Positions 1-10,062 of a stretch of DNA of 64,000 nt are shown here, one piece after another. The number at the start of each line of letters is the position of its first letter. Position 1 is the stretch's first letter. The notes beneath the pieces are model-generated. The model did no database searches. It saw nothing but the letters and a program-made list of their open reading frames with translations, and was not told the DNA's origin. The DNA is taken from assembly GCA_020637165.1 (NCBI GenBank), contig JACJWN010000006.1:186001-250000 (forward strand), given 5' to 3'. A program made the translations under genes and the position numbers. This stretch comes from Mycolicibacterium sp. GTDB taxonomy: Bacteria > Actinomycetota > Actinomycetes > Mycobacteriales > Mycobacteriaceae.

Positions 1-618
1 AGTCAACCCCCGGGCTGGTACCGATTCGAAGAGAGTGTCGAACTCGCCCAGATGTGCTGGGAGGCAATTGATCCTGGCACCACCAGTGCATTACCAGATG
101 GCAGTGATTTCCTAACCAATGCGATCAATCACCCTACAGGCCAGTTGGCAACATACTGGGTGGACAGAATCGGTCATTTATGGCGGGATGCCGCCGAGGG
201 CTGGAACGGCATCCCACCCGATTTGGCCGGCTATCTCGCGGAGCTGAGTGCGCATGACGACACGCGAAGCGAGGCCGTCAGAACCGTCTTCAGCGCCTAC
301 TTGGCGTTCTTCCACGCCGCAGATAGACAGTGGTGCAAGCAGTTCTTGATGCCGATGCTGGACTGGAGCGACCCACGCATGGCCCGGATAGCTTGGACGG
401 GATACCTGTCACAGGGGCGAGGCAGCGATGAACTCCTGGCAGATGGGTTCCTCGACCTGCTGATAGAGGCACTCGGTCATCGTCACGAGCTTTTTCCCGG
501 GGCCGCAAGCAATCTGACTCTGCTCCTTGCCAAGATTGCGGTCGAAGCTGGTGTCGACCCTGGCACGTGGATCAACACCTTTGTCACGGCCGGCTCAGCC
601 CCCTGCGTGTCAGGGTGA
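1..618 (+). pseudogene. Upstream fragment of a split SIR2-associated DUF4020-type gene
   Basis: The frame is open from base 1, so the gene starts outside the window. The fragment reads as the first part of a DUF4020-like C-terminal region: an 'NHPTGQLATYWVDRI'-type segment, then 'W..QFLMPMLDWSDPRMARIAWTGYL'. Native coding ends at about 591. The next 27 bases and the stop at 616-618 belong to an inserted IS. Removing 592-5159 joins this frame exactly to 5160-5624 and gives a continuous 'FVTATDLVEW' segment. DUF4020 is usually found at the C-terminus of SIR2-family proteins, some of them defence-related. The SIR2 part would lie upstream and is not visible. Family assignment is from remembered pattern, moderate certainty. 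Confidence 0.6.
587..591. repeat. Left copy of 5-bp direct repeat CGGCC (target duplication)
   Basis: CGGCC occurs here and at 5155-5159. Collapsing the two copies restores one reading frame across the split DUF4020-type gene, which supports this as the target-site duplication of the IS3-family insertion. Confidence 0.55.
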
Positions 619-632
619 GTTGAGTCCAGTGG
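608..632 (+). repeat. Left terminal inverted repeat of the IS3-family element
   Basis: It begins TGTCAGGGTG and contains TTGAGTCCAG. The reverse complement of 5126-5149 begins TGTCAAGGTG and contains TTGAGTCCAG, with one indel and a few mismatches. The TG...CA termini are typical of IS3-family elements. Confidence 0.6.
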
Positions 633-719
633 TTCATAGCAACCCGCCTGCAGGGCGAGATACGGATCAACGCAACGATGACGATTTCCAGCCTGGCTTC
701 AGCCGGGGAAAATGGGCAG

Positions 720-1054
720 ATGGGTTCACCACGTCCCCGTTCGGAAGGGCCGCAGCGGCGGCGTACGTTCAGTCCGGCTGAGAAGCTGGCGCATCTGGCG
801 GCCTACGAGCAGGCCTGCGAGACCAACGGGGGTGGGGCCTATCTGCGCGGTGAGGGCCTGTATTCCTCGCTGATCAGCGAGTGGCGCAAGCAACGCGACG
901 CCGGGGTGCTCGAGGGCAAGCCGGCCGGGGCCAAGGTCGGCAAGCTGACCGCCGAGCAGGCCGAGATCGCCCGCCTCAAGCGGGAGAACGCCCGGTTGAA
1001 TAAGCGGTTGACCAGCACCGAGGCCGCTTTGGAGATCATGGGAAAAGCACACGC
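720..1054 (+). pseudogene. IS3 transposase orfA, 5' part
   Basis: This encodes the N-terminal helix-turn-helix part of an IS3-family OrfA ('RRRTFSPAEKLAHL...', then 'SLISEWRKQRDAGVL'), followed by the leucine-rich 'EIARLKRENARLNKRL' helix. ATG 720 is chosen because the conserved part begins just after it; ATG 678 in the same frame is an alternative. The frame is broken at 1054, after 'EIMGKAHA', by the recombinase unit. Joining it to 4053-4112 adds 'LLESLSESAE', the usual end of this OrfA type, and a stop that overlaps the orfB start. Confidence 0.7.
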
Positions 1055-1055
1055 T

Positions 1056-1068
1056 TATGTCGGTGATC
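1056..1068 (+). repeat. Left inverted repeat of the recombinase unit
   Basis: TATGTCGGTGATC matches the reverse complement of 4035-4047 (TATGCAGGTGATC) at 11 of 13 positions and lies at the inferred left end of the unit. Confidence 0.45.
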
Positions 1069-1072
1069 GCTG

Positions 1073-2920
1073 TCAAGTGCGAGGCCGGTCGAGTCTGGTG
1101 AGCAGTTCGAGGTAGACGGTTTTGCGGCGGGGTTCGTCGCGTTCGGTGGCGTTGGCGAGCTGGTTGGCCAGGATCTGGCGGTGGTCCTCGGTGGTGGCGA
1201 AGTGGGTGCAGGTTTCGCAGATGGTTTCGTAGCGGCAGTCCAGAGCGGCGGGGCGGGTGCAGTGTCCGTTGCCGAGCAGCCTGGTGGTTTCGCCGCGTAG
1301 TCGTCGCATGTTTGGGCCCTCGGCTTCGGCGGGCAGGCTGGGGTTGCTTTCCGCGTAGAGGTTTTCGACTTGTGTTGTGACGGAGAAGTATTCGTCGGCG
1401 ACGGTGCGGTCGGAGATTCGGGCATAGGTCATCGTCATTGACATCGAAGTGTGTCCGAGCAGGGCGGCGATGGCTTCCAGGCTCATGCCGTTGTTGATGG
1501 CTTGGGTGGCCAGGGTGTGGCGCAGTTGGTGTGGGGTGACGTGGCCGATTCCGGCGGTGCGTGCGGCGGACTGGACGGCGTTGTCGACGCGGCGGCCGGG
1601 GATCGGCCGTCCGCGGTCGGTGAACATCAAGGTGCTGCCGGGCTGGGCGGGGTGGGCCGTGAGCCAGTGCGTGAGGAGTTCGTCGACCCGGGGGTGGAGT
1701 GGGATGTAGCGGTCGGTGTGGAGTTTGCCGACCGGGGTGCGTAGCCACCGAGCCGAGCCAATATCGGTGATAGCGTCGCGGGTCAGGCCGAGGAATTCTC
1801 CTTTGCGCAGGCCGGTGCGGGCGAGCACCTCCACGGCGAGGCGGTCGAATTCATCGGGCAGGGTGCGGGCGGCGCGTAGCAGGGCGGAGGCGTCGGCGTC
1901 GCAGAGGAACCGTGGGAGCGGTCGGTCGCGGATGGGCATGTCGCCGGCGAAGACGGGGTTGCGGGTGGGGGCGTCGGAATAGTCCCATTCGATGATGCGG
2001 TCGAAGAAGCTGCGCAGATGCCCCAGACGCATGCCGATGGTCGTTTTAGCAGGGCCGGGATTGCTGCGGTAGCCGACCCGGCTGGTCAGGAAGGTTTTGA
2101 ACCCTTCGATGTGGGTGCGGCTGATCTCGGCGACTGCCGCGATGTCGGGGTGGTGATCGATGAGGTAGACAGCCAGGTGGCGCAGGGTGGTGTCGATCAG
2201 TGCGACGCTGCCCGGTCGCATGCTGATCGTGACCTGGGTCAGATAGCGGCGCATCGTGGCGACCAGGCGTGGGGCGCGGGCGGCCAGCTCGTCCCAGTGC
2301 GCTGTGCGACTCGACGGTGACAGCCTGCCCGGCGGGGCATCTGGGAGTACACCCAGCCCGGCCAGGGTGGCTTTGAGCCCGTGTAGCGGAGTGGACCACG
2401 ACAGCGGAATCCTGCCGTCTGGGCGGGTGTGGGCAGTGGTGAGCTCGGCGACGGCAGCGCCGAATTGGTTGGGGTCCAGCGCTTCTGGTGATATCCCGGT
2501 AGTGGCGGTGACCTTGGCCAGAACGCCCCACTGGCGGCGTGTCTCGGCGGTGGTGAATCCCAGCGTGGCTGCGGTGCGCTCGAATGTGTCGGCGAAGTTC
2601 GGGTAGACGAGTGTGGCGTGGTGACCCCACGCGCTGCGACAGGACCGCACGTAGTGGGCTTCAGCGGGCCGCGCGGTGGCCAGCAGCAGGTAGGCGATCA
2701 GACCCCGGATCCCAAGGGAGGCAGAAAGACGCTGCGCGACTGGGGCGGAGGCCCATCCGGTCAGGTCGGTGAACTCCCTGATGTAGGCGCCGACGATGCT
2801 GTTCCTGTTCTTGCGCGCGATCTGCGAGCCGCCGGCCGCGATGAACCCCGCGGCGGCAGCTGACTCGCCGGACGGCCCAGCCGTGGTTTGCGGTCCCACG
2901 GTGACGGCGCGGAGACTCAC
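1073..2920 (-). CDS. TnpB-like tyrosine recombinase (615 aa)
   Basis: This is the second gene of the Tn554-like pair. It has a tyrosine-recombinase catalytic half with 'TGLRKGEFLGL' (first catalytic Arg), 'HQLRHTLAT' (His-x-x-Arg) and 'LLGHTSMSMTMTYARI' (His and nucleophilic Tyr). A cysteine-rich tail follows ('DCRYETICETCTHF'), as in TnpB proteins. The length is close to Tn554 TnpB. Translation starts with GTG at 2920, overlapping the stop of the upstream recombinase gene (GTGA), so the two are translationally coupled. It probably acts with its partner in DNA strand exchange at the unit's ends. Confidence 0.8.
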   Translation of the reverse strand: MSLRAVTVGPQTTAGPSGESAAAAGFIAAGGSQIARKNRNSIVGAYIREFTDLTGWASAPVAQRLSASLGIRGLIAYLLLATARPAEAHYVRSCRSAWGHHATLVYPNFADTFERTAATLGFTTAETRRQWGVLAKVTATTGISPEALDPNQFGAAVAELTTAHTRPDGRIPLSWSTPLHGLKATLAGLGVLPDAPPGRLSPSSRTAHWDELAARAPRLVATMRRYLTQVTISMRPGSVALIDTTLRHLAVYLIDHHPDIAAVAEISRTHIEGFKTFLTSRVGYRSNPGPAKTTIGMRLGHLRSFFDRIIEWDYSDAPTRNPVFAGDMPIRDRPLPRFLCDADASALLRAARTLPDEFDRLAVEVLARTGLRKGEFLGLTRDAITDIGSARWLRTPVGKLHTDRYIPLHPRVDELLTHWLTAHPAQPGSTLMFTDRGRPIPGRRVDNAVQSAARTAGIGHVTPHQLRHTLATQAINNGMSLEAIAALLGHTSMSMTMTYARISDRTVADEYFSVTTQVENLYAESNPSLPAEAEGPNMRRLRGETTRLLGNGHCTRPAALDCRYETICETCTHFATTEDHRQILANQLANATERDEPRRKTVYLELLTRLDRPRT

Positions 2921-3972
2921 GCCTCACCGCCGCTCGACGTACCGATCAACGACGAATCCAGGGCCGTGACTGCCTGGTGGTACTGGGTCGATAGCCAGGT
3001 GTCAGCCAAATGCAGGTAGATGCGGGTGGAGGCGATGTTGCGGTGCCCGGCCTGGGCTTGCACGGCCTCCAGCGACATGCCCGCCTCCCGCAGACGGGTC
3101 AGGCAGGTGTGGCGCAGCATGTGGCAGGTGACCTGTTCGATGCCGGCGCGGTGACGGGCGCCGCGCAGGATCTCATCGAGACCGGGAGCCGACAGTGGTT
3201 GCCCGCGGCGTGGCCCCTTCAACGTGACGAACACCCGGTCGGTGGATGTTGCGGTACCGTCGCGCTCCTCGTCGAGATAGCGGGCCAAGGCGGTGAAGAA
3301 TCCGGATGCGACCGGAACGATGCGATGGTGTCCGCCTTTGCCTTCGGTGATGATGACCCTGCGGTCGGCGAGGTTGATATCAGTCAGGCGCAGCCCGAGG
3401 ACCTCGCAACGGCGCAGCCCACCGAGCAACATTGCCAGGACCATCGCCCGGTCGCGGCGGGTACATAGCGCAGCGAGCAGCCGGGCCGCATCGGCGGGGG
3501 TCAGAACCCGAGGCAGGGTGCGGGGAGTTCGGATCAGCGGCGTGGCGCGGCCGCTTCGCTGCCGCGTGGCGGGAAGACGGACGCTCAACCCGGTGGGAAC
3601 CGGACTGGCGCTGACCAGATCACGGGCACACAGGTAGCCGTAGAGCCCCGACAGCGTCGCCAGACGTCGCGCGATAGTGCGCGCAGAGAGCCCCTTCTCG
3701 CCGTCAGCAAGGCGGACCACGTTGTCACCGCGCACCGGAAGTCGCTGGGCGGCAATGAAGTCCAGCACGTCGTTCCTGGTCACCTCGACGGGATCCTTGC
3801 CGACGACCGTGAAGAAGACCTTCAGGTCATAGCCGGCAGCCAGCACCGAGTTCGGGCGGCAGCGGGCAGCGACGAACCGCAGATAATCGTCGAGCAAATC
3901 GTGGCCGAGTCGAACCTCGACACCGGTGTCTCCCAGCGGTCGTCGCGACAGGCACGGCATGAATACAGACAT
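2917..3972 (-). CDS. TnpA-like tyrosine recombinase (351 aa)
   Basis: This is the first gene of the Tn554-like pair. It has an N-terminal SAM-like core-binding domain ('LLDDYLRFVAARCRPNS', then 'TRNDVLDFIAAQR'). The catalytic domain has 'LLGGLRRCEVLGL' (Arg), 'GKGGHHRIVP' (Lys), 'HMLRHTCLT' (His/Arg) and 'AGHRNIASTRIYLH' (His and nucleophilic Tyr), so all catalytic residues are present. It sits about 80 bp inside the right end of the unit, in the expected promoter-proximal place. Gene overlap with the 615 aa partner indicates a functional pair. Confidence 0.8.
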   Translation of the reverse strand: MSVFMPCLSRRPLGDTGVEVRLGHDLLDDYLRFVAARCRPNSVLAAGYDLKVFFTVVGKDPVEVTRNDVLDFIAAQRLPVRGDNVVRLADGEKGLSARTIARRLATLSGLYGYLCARDLVSASPVPTGLSVRLPATRQRSGRATPLIRTPRTLPRVLTPADAARLLAALCTRRDRAMVLAMLLGGLRRCEVLGLRLTDINLADRRVIITEGKGGHHRIVPVASGFFTALARYLDEERDGTATSTDRVFVTLKGPRRGQPLSAPGLDEILRGARHRAGIEQVTCHMLRHTCLTRLREAGMSLEAVQAQAGHRNIASTRIYLHLADTWLSTQYHQAVTALDSSLIGTSSGGEA

Positions 3973-4034
3973 GCAGACAGATCCCTCCAGGTCCCGCCCC
4001 GCTGACCGCGGTCGCCGTCAAATAGTCAGGCCAG

Positions 4035-4047
4035 GATCACCTGCATA
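4035..4047 (-). repeat. Right inverted repeat of the recombinase unit
   Basis: On the minus strand this reads TATGCAGGTGATC and pairs with 1056-1068. It lies five bases inside the inferred right junction. Confidence 0.45.
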
Positions 4048-4052
4048 TCCTT

Positions 4053-4112
4053 GCGCTCTTGGAGAGTCTCTCCGAGAGCGCGGAGCCGCCAAGCACGCCG
4101 AGACGGCGTTGA
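4053..4112 (+). pseudogene. IS3 transposase orfA, 3' part
   Basis: In the frame that continues 720-1054 this segment reads 'ALLESLSESAEPPSTPRRR' and stops with TGA at 4110-4112. The TGA overlaps the ATG of orfB (4112-4114) as TGATG, the normal orfA/orfB overlap of IS3-family elements. It has no start of its own and is separated from its 5' part by the recombinase unit. Confidence 0.65.
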
Positions 4113-5122
4113 TGGACGCCTGGGAGGCGTTGCGGGCACAGGGGATTCCCACCCGGGCGGCGGCGGAGTTGACCGGCATGAACCGCTCGACGGCGTTGCG
4201 TCGTTCAGCACGCAAGCCCAGTGAACGCACCGCGGCGGTGACGGTGCCGGTCAACAAGCTCACCGCCGCCGAGTGCGCCCGGGTTCTCGATGAGCTCAAC
4301 AGCGCCCGCTTCGTTGACTGCGCGCCGCTGCAGGTGTGGGCCACGCTGCTCGATGAGGGCACCTACCTGTGTTCGGTCTCGACGATGTATCGCATCCTGA
4401 CGGCGAACAAGCAGGTCAAGGAGCGTCGCCGGCTGGCCCGGCACCGCAAGGCGGTCTGCCCGGAGCTGGTGGCCACCGCCCCGCGGCAGGTGTACTCCTG
4501 GGACATCACCAAACTGGCCGGCCCGGCCAAGGGGATCTACTACGACGCCTACGTGATGATCGACATCTTCTCGCGCTACATCGTCGGGGTGCACGTGAAC
4601 GCCCGCGAGTGCGGGGTGCTGGCCACCGAGATGATGGAGCAGATCTTCGGCACCTACGGCATCCCGCACGTCGTGCACGCCGACCGGGGAACCTCGATGA
4701 CCAGCAACAGCGTCGCCGGGCTACTTGCCGAACTGGGGGTGACCCGCTCGCATTCACGGCCCAAGGTCTCCAACGACAACCCCTACAGCGAGTCCTGGTT
4801 CAAGACCCTCAAGTACGCCCCGGCCTTCCCGGAACGCTTCGCATCCATCCACCACGCACGGGACTTCATGGACGAATTCGTCGCCTGGTACAACCACGAG
4901 CACCGCCACAGCGGCATCGGCCTGCACACCCCCGCCGACGTCTTCTACGGCCTGGCCACCGAGAAGGACACCCAGCGCCGCGCCGTGCTCGCCGAGGCCC
5001 GAGCACGCCACCGGCACCGCTTCAGCGCCGATGCCGCACCCAAGATCATCGACCTACCCGAGACCGCCGCGATCAACCCGCCAAAACCGGCAGAACCGGA
5101 GAACAAGACGACAGCCGCCTAA
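4112..5122 (+). CDS. IS3-family transposase OrfB (DDE integrase core, 336 aa)
   Basis: The product starts 'MDAWEALRAQGIPTRAAAEL'. It has an HTH_21-like region, then an rve integrase core with the DDE acids in 'VYSWDITKL', 'VHADRGTSM' and 'NPYSESWFKTLK'. It ends with the 'YNHEHRHSGIGLHTPADVFYG' segment typical of IS3 OrfB. It is intact. In IS3 elements the active transposase is usually an OrfA-OrfB fusion made by a -1 frameshift, which cannot happen here while orfA is split. The 3' end is 27 bp before the right inverted-repeat terminus. Confidence 0.88.
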   Translation: MDAWEALRAQGIPTRAAAELTGMNRSTALRRSARKPSERTAAVTVPVNKLTAAECARVLDELNSARFVDCAPLQVWATLLDEGTYLCSVSTMYRILTANKQVKERRRLARHRKAVCPELVATAPRQVYSWDITKLAGPAKGIYYDAYVMIDIFSRYIVGVHVNARECGVLATEMMEQIFGTYGIPHVVHADRGTSMTSNSVAGLLAELGVTRSHSRPKVSNDNPYSESWFKTLKYAPAFPERFASIHHARDFMDEFVAWYNHEHRHSGIGLHTPADVFYGLATEKDTQRRAVLAEARARHRHRFSADAAPKIIDLPETAAINPPKPAEPENKTTAA

Positions 5123-5125
5123 CAC

Positions 5126-5149
5126 CCGCTGGACTCAAACACCTTGACA
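5126..5149 (-). repeat. Right terminal inverted repeat of the IS3-family element
   Basis: The reverse complement begins TGTCAAGGTG and contains TTGAGTCCAG, pairing with the left repeat at 608-632. Confidence 0.6.
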
Positions 5150-5154
5150 AATTC

Positions 5155-5159
5155 CGGCC
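5155..5159. repeat. Right copy of 5-bp direct repeat CGGCC
   Basis: This is the same five bases as 587-591. Joining base 591 to base 5160 gives an uninterrupted frame in the DUF4020-type gene. Confidence 0.55.
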
Positions 5160-5624
5160 ACGGACCTCGTCGAATGGGCCCAGGACGTCGGCCATGAACT
5201 CAGAGCGCTCGACCCGGCTGTGTCCGACGCCCAATGGGATCGCTGGATACAGCGCTACCTGACTGACCGCGTTGGCAGCATTCCCAAAGCCCTGACACCC
5301 GAGGAGGTATCCGCCACAGCATTGTGGGTTCCGTATCTATCAGACTCGATGGGTGCCGCCATCGACCTGCTTCTTCAAGTGCCATCGGCTGGATTGGATG
5401 CGCACACCTTGTTCCTGCACGAACTTCGAGACGAGCGGATCGAATGTGAGCCGGAAAGCCTTGCTCGGTTGGTCGGATCCCTCCTCAAGGCAACGACGGG
5501 TCAGTTTCACGCCTCTCTCGACGTGCAGCGCGTTTATCGGAAGTTCAGGGATTGCGGCGTCTCACCCGATGTTCTGCACGAAATTGCCGAAGCAGCCTTG
5601 GCATTGGGATTTTCGGTGCAGTGA
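5160..5624 (+). pseudogene. Downstream fragment of the split DUF4020-type gene
   Basis: This is the C-terminal 154 residues of the gene whose first part ends at 591. The frame runs 'TDLVEWAQDVGHELRALDP', then 'WDRWIQRYLTDRVGSIPKAL...EE...W', the W/Y/R-G-P pattern of the DUF4020 C-terminal half, to a stop at 5622-5624. An internal GTG at 5220 could start a short peptide, but the homologous frame begins upstream of it. The SF1 helicase gene follows after 62 bp on the same strand, so the intact gene was probably the first cistron of that operon. Confidence 0.6.
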
Positions 5625-5686: not shown

Positions 5687-7783
5687 TTGCCAACACTAGC
5701 CATCGATAAGGGCTTCCTGTCGGACCTGGTGAAGCTTGAGAAACCCGTCGCCAAGCGAGTCGCTGAGGTGTTCGACGAGTTCGACGCCGCCACCCACACC
5801 GGGCTGCATTTGGAGAAGATCGCCAACGCCCGCAACCCCCGATTCCGGTCTATCCGCATCGACCAGGCCTGGCGGGGAATCGTGCTCGCCCCGCTCAGCG
5901 GCGACGTGTACACCCTGCTGAAGGTTCTGCACCACGACGACGCCTACGCGTGGGCGCAGCGCAGCAACGTCTCGGTCAACTCGGCCACCGGCGGTATTGA
6001 GATCCGCGACGAAGCCGAACTCGACCGCCAGATTCCCGAGCGGCAAGAAGCGGCGAAAGCCGCGGGCAGCCCGGTCTTCGCCCACATCAAAGACGGTGAG
6101 CTGGCCAAGCTCGGAATCGACGAGAAGGTCCTGGCCTTCGCCCGCACCGTCACCGACCCCGCTCAACTCGACGCCGCGAAATCCTTTCTGCCCGAGACGC
6201 AATGGGATGTGCTCTTCGGCCTGGCCGCCGGATTCACCCCCGAGGAAGTCTGGACCGACCTCGGCGCCCAGATCCTCTCCGAACCCGTGGACACCGAGGA
6301 CATCGACGCGGCCATCCTGCGCAGCAGCGACCGCGTCGTCCTGGTCAGCGGACCCGACGAACTGATGGACGTATTCGCCTACCCGCTGGCGACCTGGCGG
6401 GTATATCTCCACCCGACTCAGCGCGCCGTGGTCGATGTCTCCTACAAGGGCCCAGCCCGCGTGACCGGGGGTCCGGGCACCGGCAAGACGGTCGTCGCGC
6501 TGCACCGGGCAAGCCGATTGGCCAAGCGCGGAGAAGGCAAGGTACTCGTCACGACGTTCACCTCGACGCTGTCCGAGAACCTGCAGTCCGGCCTCGACAT
6601 GCTCATGGACGACGAGGAGGCCGAAAGCCGGATCGAGGTCTCCCACGTCGACCGGGTCGCTCACCGCGTATTCCGGCAGACCCACGGCGCACCGAGCATG
6701 CTCCCCGAGGTCGAAGAGAAGGAACTGTGGGCGGGCTTGGTCGCTGAACTCGGATTGAGCTTCAACCCCGTGTTCCTCGCTGAGGAATGGCGACAGGTGG
6801 TGCTGGCTCGTCAGATCACCACCGCCGACGAATACCTGAAAGCCAAGCGGACCGGACGTGGTCGTCCCCTCGGAGCAGCCCAGCGCGCGCAGGTCTGGCA
6901 GTTGATCTGGGAATTCGAAGACACCCTCACCCAGCAGGGACGGTGGACCTACGAGACCATCCGCCGCGAGGCCACCCGGTTGCTGGAGGAGTCGCCCGAC
7001 AAGCCGTTTCGTCACATCATTATCGACGAGGCCCAAGATCTCAGTCCCGACCAATGGCGTCTGCTGCGCGCCGCAGTGGCCGAAGCGCCCGATGACATCT
7101 TCATCGCCGGCGATACCCACCAACGCATTTATGACAACCGGGTCAGCCTGCGTGAGGTCGGCATCAAGATCGCGGGCCGTTCATCGCGGCTGAACATCAA
7201 TTACCGGACCACCGCAGAGATTCTCGGGTGGAGCCTGGGTCTGTTGCGAGGGGAGCCGATCGACGACATGGAAGGTGGCCTCGATTCCATCGCCGGCTGC
7301 AAGTCCTATGCGCACGGGCCGCCACCCGCCCTGAGTGGGCACAGCAGTCTCGGATCCGAGGCCGAGCACATCGCAGCCGTCATCAATGGCTGGATCGACA
7401 GCGGAATCGCGGCATCGGAGATCGGCCTGGCGGTCCGAGCGAAATGGTTGACGTCCAAGATCGAGGCCGTGCTCAAGCGGTCCGGGATCGACACCATCGA
7501 CCTGGCCAAAGCCTCCGATGACGACGACGCGGTCCGCGTCGGCACCATGCACCGTATGAAGGGTCTGGAGTTCCGCGGTATGTGCGTTGCCGGGGTAAAC
7601 GCCAAACTCGTACCCGCCGTCAACGCCGTCACCCCGGCCGAGGACGACAAGCAGACCCATCAGCAAGACCTGGAGCGCGAACGTTGCTTGCTTTTTGTGG
7701 CCTGCACCCGTGCCCGGGAGGAGCTACTCGTCACCTGGCACGGCGAACCCAGCCCGTTCCTCAACGCACTTGAAAAGAACTGA
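5687..7783 (+). CDS. SF1 (UvrD/Rep-type) helicase with RelE/ParE-like N-terminal domain (698 aa)
   Basis: Residues 1-95 look like a RelE/ParE-type toxin fold ('FLSDLVKLEKPVAKRVAEVF', then 'RIDQAWRGIVLAP...YTLLKVLHHDDAYAWA'). A linker follows, then an SF1A helicase: Q-motif 'LHPTQRAVVD' (241-250), Walker A 'GGPGTGKT' (261-268), Walker B 'IIIDEAQD' (444-451), 'NINYRTT' (503-509), 'VGTMHRMKGLEF' (618-629) and motif VI 'ACTRAREEL'. The start is TTG with GGGAG upstream. It lies between the split DUF4020-type gene and the GmrSD-like gene, 14 bp before the latter, so probably one operon. The defence role is inferred from context. Confidence 0.85.
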   Translation: MPTLAIDKGFLSDLVKLEKPVAKRVAEVFDEFDAATHTGLHLEKIANARNPRFRSIRIDQAWRGIVLAPLSGDVYTLLKVLHHDDAYAWAQRSNVSVNSATGGIEIRDEAELDRQIPERQEAAKAAGSPVFAHIKDGELAKLGIDEKVLAFARTVTDPAQLDAAKSFLPETQWDVLFGLAAGFTPEEVWTDLGAQILSEPVDTEDIDAAILRSSDRVVLVSGPDELMDVFAYPLATWRVYLHPTQRAVVDVSYKGPARVTGGPGTGKTVVALHRASRLAKRGEGKVLVTTFTSTLSENLQSGLDMLMDDEEAESRIEVSHVDRVAHRVFRQTHGAPSMLPEVEEKELWAGLVAELGLSFNPVFLAEEWRQVVLARQITTADEYLKAKRTGRGRPLGAAQRAQVWQLIWEFEDTLTQQGRWTYETIRREATRLLEESPDKPFRHIIIDEAQDLSPDQWRLLRAAVAEAPDDIFIAGDTHQRIYDNRVSLREVGIKIAGRSSRLNINYRTTAEILGWSLGLLRGEPIDDMEGGLDSIAGCKSYAHGPPPALSGHSSLGSEAEHIAAVINGWIDSGIAASEIGLAVRAKWLTSKIEAVLKRSGIDTIDLAKASDDDDAVRVGTMHRMKGLEFRGMCVAGVNAKLVPAVNAVTPAEDDKQTHQQDLERERCLLFVACTRAREELLVTWHGEPSPFLNALEKN

Positions 7784-7797
7784 ACAGGAGATTTTCG

Positions 7798-10062
7798 GTG
7801 ACCCGCCTTTCCACCCTGCTTGACGAAATCGACTCCGGCGTAGTGCTTCTGCCGGAGTTCCAGCGCGGCTACGTCTGGAACCGCGACCAGGTCCGCGGGC
7901 TCATGCGGTCGCTCTACCGCGGCTACCCCGTCGGGGGCCTCCTGGTGTGGGAGACGACGTCGGATGACATCAACGTGCGCGGCGCCACCCCCAGCAGCGG
8001 TGCTCGGCAACTTCTCCTTGACGGCCAACAGCGGGTCACTTCGATGTACGGCGTCGTAAGAGGTACTCCACCGCCCTTCTTCGAAGGCGATAAGACCTCG
8101 TTCACCGGGCTCTACTTCAACGTCGAGTCCGAGTCCTTCGAGTTCTACGCACCCACCAAGATGGCCGGTGACCCAACCTGGGTGAACGTCACCGAGTTAT
8201 TCAGTAAGGGCGTCACCAAGTACCTGCGGGCCTTCCCCGATGCCGACGACGACACCGTCGACATCTACATCGACAGATTGAACCGCATCACCCAGATAGC
8301 CAACCGCGACTTCAACTCCGAGAAAATCACCGGCGCAGACAAGACCGTCGACGAGGTCGTCGACATCTTCAACAAGGTGAACTCCGGCGGGACCAAGCTG
8401 TCCAAAGGCGACTTGGCGCTCGCCAAGCTCTGCGCGGAATGGCCGGAGGCTCGAAAGGAACTGCGCGACAACATCGACCGCTGGCGCGGGGCCGGCTTCA
8501 CGTTCTCCCTGGACTGGTTGTTGCGGAATGCCACCGCGGTCGCGACCGGCCGGGCGTTGTTCTCAAGTTTGTCGGATGTCTCCGCAGCTGATTTCAAGGT
8601 TGCGCTCGGCAAGTCGGTCAACCACATCGGCACCTTTCTCGATGCGGCATCGGGGCGGCTTGGCCTCGACCACGACCGGGTCCTGATGGGCCGTTATGCC
8701 ACACCGGTCATCACCAGGCTTCTGCACCTCAACGGCGGTGGGTTCGCCGACAGCGCCCACCGCGACAAAGTCCTCTACTGGTACGTCCACTCCGCACTGT
8801 GGGGCCGCTACAGTGGCTCGACCGAAACCTATCTGCAGCAGGACTACGAGGCCGTCGAACGGGGTGGCGTCGAGGCCCTGATCTCGACACTGGAACGCAT
8901 CCGGGGTGGCCGTCTGGCCGTGAGCCCTGAGGACTTCAGGGGCTCCACCATAGGGTCACGTTTCTATCCGCTCCTCTACCTGTTGACCCGTGTTGACGGT
9001 GCACGCGATTTCGGAAGCGGGCTGCAACTGCGAGCGGAACTTCTCGGCAAGCTGACCTCTTTGCAGGTGCACCACATCTTCCCCAAGGCGCTGCTGCACG
9101 AGCACAAGTTCGACCGCAACGAGATCAACGCGATCGCGAACTTCTGCTTCCTGACCCAGGACACCAACCTCAAGATCGGGAAGCGGAACCCGGCCGAATA
9201 CCTGGCCGAAGTCCAGGACAAGCACCCGGGAGCTCTGGAATCGCAATGGATTCCGACCGATCCCGACCTCTGGCGGGTCGAGCGCTATCGGGACTTCCTG
9301 GCCGCCCGTCGCGAGCTGCTGGCCGAGTCCGCCCAATCGTTCCTCGAGGGGCTGCGAAGCGACGGCGGGAAAGATGACGATACGGAGCTGGGACGGCTTC
9401 AAGTCACCGACGAGGTCGCCGACGACCCTCGCAGCGAGCAGTTCCGAGCGCTGATCGCGGAACTGGCAAGCCGCGGCTTCGCCACTCCCATCATTGACAC
9501 TGAGATTCCTGACCCCGTGAGTGGCACTGAACTCGCTGTTGCTGAGGCATTCTGGCCCAACGGCCTCCAGCACGGAGTCGGCTCGCCGGTGGTCCTGGAA
9601 CTCGACCCAGAGGATGCGGACCTGCCCCGACTCGAGGAGCTCGGGTACCAAGTATTCACCTCGGTCGACGCGCTCTTGGGCTTCATCGGGAACGAGAGCA
9701 TCAGCGCCGCCGGCGAGGAGCCGCTGGTCGACCTTGACAAACCTCCAGTGGAAAGTGGCGTCGCGGCTGAGTTCGGGCAACGGATGAAGGCTGTCTACGA
9801 CCGCGGCCGCGCCGAAGCAGGCTACAACGCTTCCTATTTCTTGAGCATGCTGGCACAACACGGCCCTGTGGAAACCGCACACCGACTCTTGGCGTCCCCC
9901 GCCATCTCCGACGGCTTCGCCGAACTCTGGGAACGTAAACGGCTCGACCTCACTGTCGAAGCCATCGTTGTCGATCCGAAGTTCTCGGAGTTGTTCACCG
10001 CGGATGAGATTGAGGTAGCGAGGAAGCGACTGGCGCAGTTCGGATACCAGCCGACTTCTTAG
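7798..10062 (+). CDS. GmrSD-like DUF262/DUF1524 nuclease with C-terminal extension (754 aa)
   Basis: The N-terminal DUF262 part has 'LLPEFQRGYVWNRDQV' (from residue 17) and 'LLLDGQQRVTSMY', a ParB/GmrS-like NTP-binding pattern. The DUF1524 part has an HNH-type motif 'LQVHHIFPKALL' (422-433) followed by 'NEINAIANFCFLT'. Proteins of this type act as type IV restriction enzymes on modified phage DNA. Residues after about 530 are extra: an acidic linker, a small alpha/beta region and a terminal segment ('HGPVETAHRLL', 'LDLTVEAIVVDPKFSELFT') of a kind I associate with accessory domains in other restriction proteins. The start is GTG with AGGAG upstream. Confidence 0.85.
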   Translation: MTRLSTLLDEIDSGVVLLPEFQRGYVWNRDQVRGLMRSLYRGYPVGGLLVWETTSDDINVRGATPSSGARQLLLDGQQRVTSMYGVVRGTPPPFFEGDKTSFTGLYFNVESESFEFYAPTKMAGDPTWVNVTELFSKGVTKYLRAFPDADDDTVDIYIDRLNRITQIANRDFNSEKITGADKTVDEVVDIFNKVNSGGTKLSKGDLALAKLCAEWPEARKELRDNIDRWRGAGFTFSLDWLLRNATAVATGRALFSSLSDVSAADFKVALGKSVNHIGTFLDAASGRLGLDHDRVLMGRYATPVITRLLHLNGGGFADSAHRDKVLYWYVHSALWGRYSGSTETYLQQDYEAVERGGVEALISTLERIRGGRLAVSPEDFRGSTIGSRFYPLLYLLTRVDGARDFGSGLQLRAELLGKLTSLQVHHIFPKALLHEHKFDRNEINAIANFCFLTQDTNLKIGKRNPAEYLAEVQDKHPGALESQWIPTDPDLWRVERYRDFLAARRELLAESAQSFLEGLRSDGGKDDDTELGRLQVTDEVADDPRSEQFRALIAELASRGFATPIIDTEIPDPVSGTELAVAEAFWPNGLQHGVGSPVVLELDPEDADLPRLEELGYQVFTSVDALLGFIGNESISAAGEEPLVDLDKPPVESGVAAEFGQRMKAVYDRGRAEAGYNASYFLSMLAQHGPVETAHRLLASPAISDGFAELWERKRLDLTVEAIVVDPKFSELFTADEIEVARKRLAQFGYQPTS

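What the first reader, a model, noticed from the sequence alone, without database searches (positions are those of the whole stretch)
1..5624. Three-layer nested insertion: DUF4020 gene split by an IS3 element, itself split by a Tn554-like recombinase pair
Removing 592-5159 joins two DUF4020-type halves in frame, with CGGCC as the direct repeat. Removing 1055-4052 restores IS3 orfA, whose stop then overlaps the orfB start (TGATG). Order of events: gene, IS, recombinase unit. The recombinase unit chose a conserved site in an IS ('GKAHA/LLE'), a strategy that would give it many safe targets and mobility with the IS.
Basis: partly seen in the sequence, partly recalled or inferred. Interest (0 to 1): 0.75.

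Follow-up and report, generated by a model that had tools for sequence, protein, structure and literature searches.

The report
Transposon that targets other transposons' genes
In a Mycobacterium relative, a small two-gene mobile element sits inside the transposase gene of another mobile element, which itself sits inside a broken anti-virus defence gene; the close relatives examined strike the same spot, and much of the wider family strikes fixed spots in other mobile elements' enzymes.

Summary
The three layers are real. An IS3-family element (601-5156, 3-bp repeats GCC) splits a gene like the anti-phage sirtuin gene dsr1. Inside its orfA lies a 3,000-bp, cargo-free pair of tyrosine-recombinase genes. 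Three identical 1,556-bp copies in the same genome are natural empty sites; in relatives the two gene halves are contiguous.

The pair belongs to the Tn554-related actinobacterial class of Van Houdt et al. 2012, whose section on it describes no targets. All 11 insertions examined in the window's clade lie at one codon of an IS3 orfA, at the orfA/orfB overlap. Other clades hit other motifs: IS3 orfB, IS21 istA, an ISL3 transposase, and the GH motif of tyrosine recombinases, including TnpB of sister elements. Target class follows phylogeny. Nests recur, and two were found duplicated with edges at IS ends, so riding with the IS is plausible. The 6-bp spacer on the TnpA side stays with the element, unlike in SE elements. 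About half of 80 relatives (38) have no assigned target gene. Activity and mechanism are inferred.

The parts
1..600 (+). Piece of a dsr1-like anti-phage sirtuin gene; continues upstream outside the window, where it is also frameshifted and 5'-truncated
   Evidence: NF041818 Dsr1 E 3.6e-15, PADLOC Dsr1 E 8e-16, contiguous with the 3' piece in relative L148
598..600 (.). 3-bp target repeat GCC, left
   Evidence: IS ends set by three intact copies with 3-bp repeats GCG, CAT, ATC
601..5156 (+). IS3-family element (1,556 bp) carrying the 3,000-bp insert; ends CCCTGCGTGTCA...AATTCCG with imperfect inverted repeats
   Evidence: NF033516 transpos_IS3 166.9 bits, above cut-off 160, for orfB
678..1054 (+). 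IS3 orfA, 5' part, up to codon motif GKA
   Evidence: HTH_Tnp_1 E 1.4e-4, just below its cut-off; intact orfA in an empty copy
1049..1054 (.). Target-derived 6-bp spacer (t) at the TnpB-side junction: ACACGC
   Evidence: identical to the empty copies; junction tables
1055..1068 (.). TnpB-side end arm TTATGTCGGTGATC
   Evidence: similar arm, commonly TTATGC.GGTGATC with variants, in relatives
1073..2920 (-). tnpB-like long tyrosine recombinase, 615 aa, N-terminal extension of about 200 aa, C-terminal four-Cys motif
   Evidence: Phage_integrase E 5e-29; alignment A3
2917..3972 (-). tnpA-like tyrosine recombinase, 351 aa, overlaps tnpB by 4 bp
   Evidence: Phage_integrase E 1e-36; R187, H284, R287, H310, Y319 invariant in 6 sequences (catalytic roles recalled)
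4035..4048 (.). TnpA-side end arm (reverse complement ATATGCAGGTGATC)
   Evidence: similar arm, commonly ATATGC.GGTGATC with variants, in relatives
4049..4054 (.). Element-owned 6-bp spacer (s): CCTTGC (GCAAGG read from the TnpA side)
   Evidence: same in L027 (same target spacer) and L028 (different target spacer)
4055..4112 (+). IS3 orfA, last codons and stop; TGA overlaps the orfB ATG
4112..5122 (+). IS3 orfB (rve integrase core), 336 aa, open
   Evidence: rve E 4e-19, transpos_IS3 E 7e-49
5157..5159 (.). 3-bp target repeat GCC, right
5160..5624 (+). 3' piece of the dsr1-like gene (DUF4020)
   Evidence: DUF4020 E 7e-5; contiguous with 1-600 in L148

Best explanation
The 3,000-bp unit is a self-contained, cargo-free site-specific transposon of the Tn554-related actinobacterial class. 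Its two tyrosine recombinases recognise a DNA stretch conserved in IS3 elements, the orfA/orfB overlap. The element is a parasite of another mobile element. It inserts at one codon of orfA, exchanging strands at the edge of a 6-bp spacer, keeping its own spacer on the TnpA side and taking the target's spacer on the TnpB side. It cuts the body of orfA off from orfB, so it should disable the IS in cis while leaving the IS ends intact; intact IS copies could then move the composite in trans. Here the composite lies in a dsr1-like defence gene that is also damaged elsewhere. Shown by sequence: anatomy, natural empty sites, same-site use by the clade members examined, target class following phylogeny, duplicated nests in other genomes. 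Inferred: recombinase activity, strand order, loss of IS function, trans-mobilisation.
For: Natural empty copies of the same IS. Similar element ends in relatives. All 11 insertions examined in the clade (window, L027-L031, L131, L132, L160-L162) are at the same place in an orfA; 9 have both junctions, L030 and L031 only one. The orfA rows are one side of a branch: TnpA 97/94 for 8 rows, 92/82 for 9 rows, and TnpB support 92. Host genes partly checked with Pfam and NCBIfam. Without unassigned rows the 7 labels need 7 changes over 77 TnpA rows, 6 being the least possible; with unassigned rows counted as a label, 12 against a shuffled mean of 50.1. Spacers: the first two bases of s and t agree in 46 of 52 elements, and in 32 of 38 unique pairs against at most 21 in 10,000 shuffles; three later copies do not agree, so 46 of 55. 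Duplicated nests with edges at IS ends.
Against: No activity was measured. At the limits used the element is single-copy in this genome. The two-base agreement fails in 9 of 55. Of the 80 named loci, 9 have no assigned target and 29 short-TnpB loci show no mobile-element gene by eye (their flanks were not run against family models). Several assignments are by eye: host peptides of L035, L044 and L051 gave no relevant hit, and some others only weak ones. The short-TnpB label rests on TnpB length, spacers and tree place, so it is not independent of phylogeny. IS21 targeting needs 3 changes on the TnpA tree. In each duplicated nest only one copy shows a clear 3-bp repeat, so in-trans movement is inferred.
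Confidence: 0.85

Rival explanations
1. The element moves exactly like Tn554 and the SE elements: the 6-bp spacer picked up at the donor site is carried to the other end at each jump.
For: Same general layout (one ordinary, one long recombinase), 6-bp spacer, target specificity, target 6 bp kept at one junction (PMC10214605 passages; PMC9345347 passages).
Against: Here the TnpA-side spacer is constant within lineages while the target spacer varies: TGTTTG in 13 of 15 tyrosine-recombinase-targeting elements, with 7 kinds of target spacer, none of them TGTTTG. In Mycobacterium sp. SM1 six copies with identical TnpA match carry TGTTTG in 5 of 6 with 4 kinds of target spacer; three of the six sit in near-identical flanks, so they are not six independent events.
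Confidence: 0.15
2. The IS with the pair already inside inserted into the dsr1-like gene as one unit, rather than gene, then IS, then pair.
For: Composite units occur twice with edges at IS ends in two other genomes: 7.27 kb in G359 (99.88% identical) and 4.3 kb in G830 (99.84%). The 3-bp repeat flanks the whole composite, which fits either order.
Against: The pair breaks orfA, so movement would need help from other copies. Nothing in the window decides the order.
Confidence: 0.4
3. Coincidence: a recombinase pair with low specificity happened to land in an IS.
For: Only one copy in this genome; IS genes are common and tolerant targets.
Against: Same place in 11 of 11 clade members examined, in different IS3 elements; target class follows two gene trees.
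Confidence: 0.02

Closest known systems
Tn554-related actinobacterial transposons, Famint36/41 type without TnpC (Van Houdt et al. 2012, PMC3414803; section 10 and passages read)
   Same: One long (611-828 aa) and one short (about 350 aa) tyrosine recombinase, adjacent, no TnpC. R. erythropolis PR4 pREL1, in their Table 2, holds a 51% match to the window's TnpB inserted in an IS3 orfA. pREL1 is listed twice there; I take this copy for the Famint36/41 one because no third gene follows it.
   Different: The section read describes no target sites, ends or nesting for this type.
Tn554
   Same: Two tyrosine recombinases, fixed target, 6-bp footprint, no target duplication (PMC10214605 passages, PMC3414803 section 10).
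   Different: Has TnpC and cargo (cargo recalled); unique target; spacer said to be carried to the other side at each jump.
Strand-biased circularizing integrative elements (SE-6945, SE-6283)
   Same: One ordinary and one large recombinase, 6-bp spacer, few preferred targets; SE-6945 preferred insJ of an IS3-family element or yjjNt in E. coli (PMC9345347 passages).
   Different: Four core genes; spacer shifts sides. In K-12 MG1655 IS150 the insJ 6-mer given in the paper occurs in insJ only on the other strand, 124 nt before the AAAAAAG run, so it does not look like the same site.
Recombinase-in-trio (RIT) elements
   Same: Some lie in a transposase gene or in radC (PMC3414803 passages).
   Different: Three recombinases.
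Tn5053-family res-site hunters (PMC7765201; search listing and start of abstract only)
   Same: Transposons that target a site of other mobile elements.
   Different: DDE-type machinery and a non-coding resolution site as target (recalled).

Membership tests
IS3 family (outer element) | orfB with rve core scoring above the IS3 model cut-off | tested here: met
   NF033516 166.9 bits against cut-off 160
IS3 family (outer element) | Inverted-repeat ends, 3-bp target repeats, overlapping orfA/orfB | tested here: met
Tn554-related actinobacterial class (Famint36/41 type) | Adjacent long and short tyrosine recombinases, no TnpC, actinobacterial host | tested here: met
   615 and 351 aa, no room for a third gene in 1055-4054; 51% match on the listed pREL1
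Tn554 proper | TnpA, TnpB and TnpC | tested here: not met
   No third gene
Tn554 proper | Sequence relationship of the recombinases to Tn554 TnpA/TnpB | not tested
   Stated for the class in PMC3414803; no Tn554 protein was compared here
SE elements | Four core genes intA, tfp, intB, srap | tested here: not met
   Two genes only
SE elements | Donor spacer transferred to the opposite junction at each jump | tested here: not met
   TnpA-side spacer constant while target spacers vary in relatives; by comparison only, no transposition observed
RIT elements | Three consecutive recombinase genes | tested here: not met
Dsr1 anti-phage sirtuin (interrupted gene) | Match to the full-length family model above its cut-off | tested here: inconclusive
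   Two pieces match in order but are fragments far below cut-off 1400; the 3' piece alone gave no Dsr1 match

The most novel reading that the evidence does not exclude
Actinobacteria host a guild of hyperparasitic transposons. Lineages home on different conserved DNA motifs inside other mobile elements' recombination genes (the IS3 orfA/orfB overlap, an IS3 orfB motif, IS21 IstA, an ISL3 transposase, tyrosine recombinases including sister elements). This builds food chains of nested elements that can be copied as units. The N-terminal extension of TnpB, missing in the short-TnpB group that shows no gene targets, may select the target.
Probability: 0.6. Interest if true: 0.8.

Novelty: new variant of a known kind. 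Interest (0 to 1): 0.7.

Why it matters
The element class was named in 2012, but the text I read gives no targets for it. Target choice by conserved motifs in other mobile elements' enzymes would give a natural set of site-specific recombinases with different, legible DNA targets. It would make target switching in tyrosine recombinases testable and show a regular predator-prey layer among mobile elements. The element-owned spacer also bears on how Tn554-like elements move, which PMC10214605 (passages) calls unresolved.

Tried and rejected
Rejected: SE-6945's insJ insertion as the same site. Held less likely: SE/Tn554-type spacer transfer. Labels of two nested rows (L038_10109m, L057_7354m) were wrong and corrected; row L063_6320m was dropped there. 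In the tree, L023, L141 and L146 were left out, and rows with TnpB matches under 380 aa or TnpA matches under 250 aa were not used. Viral contigs gave one distant hit, not followed up. A PDB sequence search gave 14 matches, 13 named as Xer, integron or other integrase proteins and one chain whose listed name is unrelated. Seven of nine plasmid records were not examined. The target of the short-TnpB group was not found. Literature searches; I looked at the listings and the starts of abstracts and saw no description of this targeting; most subscription journals are not held.
Full report
Observation. The IS at 601-5156 is fixed by three intact copies in the same genome. These are 1,556 bp, identical to each other, flanked by 3-bp repeats GCG, CAT and ATC, and 97.1% (left arm) and 94.2% (right arm) identical to the window IS. 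The window copy is 4,556 bp = 1,556 + 3,000, with repeats GCC. The insert lies in orfA; the empty copies run straight through the site. Because GC is shared, the insert is 1055-4054 or 1053-4052.

The interrupted gene. An upstream piece (E 1.6e-37; PADLOC Dsr1 E 4e-26) and the piece at 1-591 (E 3.6e-15) match Dsr1 in order. The 3' piece matches DUF4020 and alone gave no Dsr1 match. Of 248 genomes of the genus, 7 including the window's own have a match to 1-591 at 1e-8. In L148 the open frame is 1,166 aa and the two window halves are contiguous; the same order is seen in L149-L153 at 33-49% identity. The window's gene also has a frameshift upstream. Its 5' end abuts a 556-bp remnant of the same IS, identical to the window copy's right end, in reverse orientation at C29:183227-183783.

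The inserted pair. TnpA (351 aa) and TnpB (615 aa) overlap by 4 bp, both with a Phage_integrase domain. The expected catalytic residues are invariant in the sequences aligned (TnpA, 6 sequences; TnpB R372, H464, R467, H490, Y499, 15 sequences; their roles are recalled). There is no third gene and no cargo. Arms TTATGTCGGTGATC and ATATGCAGGTGATC begin at the two ends and have close counterparts in relatives.

Relatives. A scan of genome contigs gave 220 stretches and 153 relatives, of which the best 80 were kept. In the genus 12 of 396 genomes have a match at 1e-70. With the closer alignment 3 of 394 in the class (1e-100) and 4 of 397 in the order (1e-130) have one; each count includes the window's own genome. 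I assigned targets to the 80 loci from flanks: IS3 orfA 5, IS3 orfB 9, tyrosine recombinase 12, IS21 istA 12, ISL3 2, an AAA ATPase 2, short-TnpB group without a recognised gene 29 (flanks not run against models), unassigned 9.

Family models were run on part of these flanks. IS3 orfA: hits for 5 of 5 loci, but the orfA pieces of L027 and L031 are below cut-off (the L027 orfB piece is just above the IS3 cut-off, 160.4 against 160), and L030 was tested on its orfB side. IS3 orfB: hits for 5 of 6 tested, those of L033, L034 and L040 weak and below cut-off; L051 none. Tyrosine recombinase: 4 of 6 tested; L035 and L044 none relevant. ISL3: 1 of 1. IS21: L049, L052, L058, L065 by Mu-transpos_C_2, L054, L060, L065, L077 by the IS21 model below its cut-off, L055 and L056 only weak helix-turn-helix or rve hits; L041, L057, L093 not tested. 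AAA: weak for L050 and L048. L083, tested, gave none. The rest are by eye.

Same site. In gene orientation the orfA insertions with a left flank follow (L/M)-(K/G/R)-(K/A/T), at the same codon phase. In the 7 measured elements with a right flank, 7-18 codons of orfA remain beyond the site, and another frame is open past it (a different frame in L030). L160-L162 were read by eye. In L028, L029 and L132 the site abuts an AAAAAAG run. PMC6211511 (passages) states that well-characterised IS3 subgroups fuse OrfA and OrfB by -1 frameshifting at A6G/C/A. The window's IS has the TGATG overlap and no such run at the site, so I claim the orfA/orfB overlap, not the slippery run, as the common target.

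Phylogeny. In the corrected TnpA tree (86 rows) IS3orfA is one side of a branch (97/94), as is IS3orfB (98/95); IS21 needs 3 changes and the tyrosine-recombinase label 4 when unassigned rows count as a label. Without unassigned rows, 7 changes suffice for 77 rows and 7 labels. A TnpB tree (70 rows, quick method) agrees: IS3orfA 1 change with support 92, IS3orfB 1 with 100, and 6 changes over 62 assigned rows. Matches to the window's TnpB begin at residue 166-224 in all 22 short-group rows measured, and at 1-56 in 50 of 51 others, one at 113; matches under 380 aa were not counted.

Spacers. In 52 elements with both junctions the first two bases agree in 46 (five doubtful ends were kept, L050 skipped at a contig edge, several elements are near-copies). 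The three G830 copies add 0 of 3. The TnpA-side spacer is lineage-constant while the target spacer varies. This fits an exchange that starts at the spacer edge nearest the TnpB arm and needs only a short match there; the strand order is inference.

Nests and hitch-hiking. In G359 an IS3 carries an orfB-targeting pair whose TnpB carries a second, recombinase-targeting pair. This 7,273-bp nest occurs twice at 99.88% identity, with flanks changing exactly at the IS ends; one copy has a GTG repeat, the other none that I could see. In G830 a 4.3-kb IS3::pair of the window's own clade occurs twice (99.84%); one copy has a TCG repeat. In L141 and L023 pairs again sit in TnpB of other pairs.

Known or new. 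The element class is known (PMC3414803). In the eight searches listed I saw no description of these targets, within an open-access library. I file it as a new variant of a known kind.

Noticed in passing
5687-10062: Next to the broken dsr1-like gene lie a UvrD/GajB-like helicase gene and a GmrSD_N-domain gene (PADLOC HEC-05-like), so this looks like a defence island.
   Followed up: partly
L009:16228-16784 (C29:183227-183783): A 556-bp remnant of the same IS, identical to the window copy's right end, lies in reverse orientation at the truncated 5' end of the dsr1-like gene.
   Followed up: partly
L072, L075, L090, L103, L105: Elements of the short-TnpB group carry two or three tandem copies of the end motif 22-32 bp apart at the TnpB end; their targets are unknown.
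   Followed up: no
L051:3121-6083: An IS3-orfB-targeting element seems to be inserted in the opposite orientation at the same site, whose spacer GTGCAC is a palindrome (by eye). Its host peptide gave no family hit.
   Followed up: no
TnpB residues 554-571 (within 1073-2920, minus strand): Four invariant cysteines (554, 562, 568, 571) near the TnpB C terminus suggest a zinc-binding tail.
   Followed up: no
L023: A triple nest in G045: an IS3 orfB holds a pair, whose TnpB holds another pair, next to an IS110-like transposase gene (by eye).
   Followed up: partly
L131:3779-6728: The element on Rhodococcus erythropolis pREL1, a plasmid listed in the 2012 survey, is itself inserted in an IS3 orfA.
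   Followed up: yes
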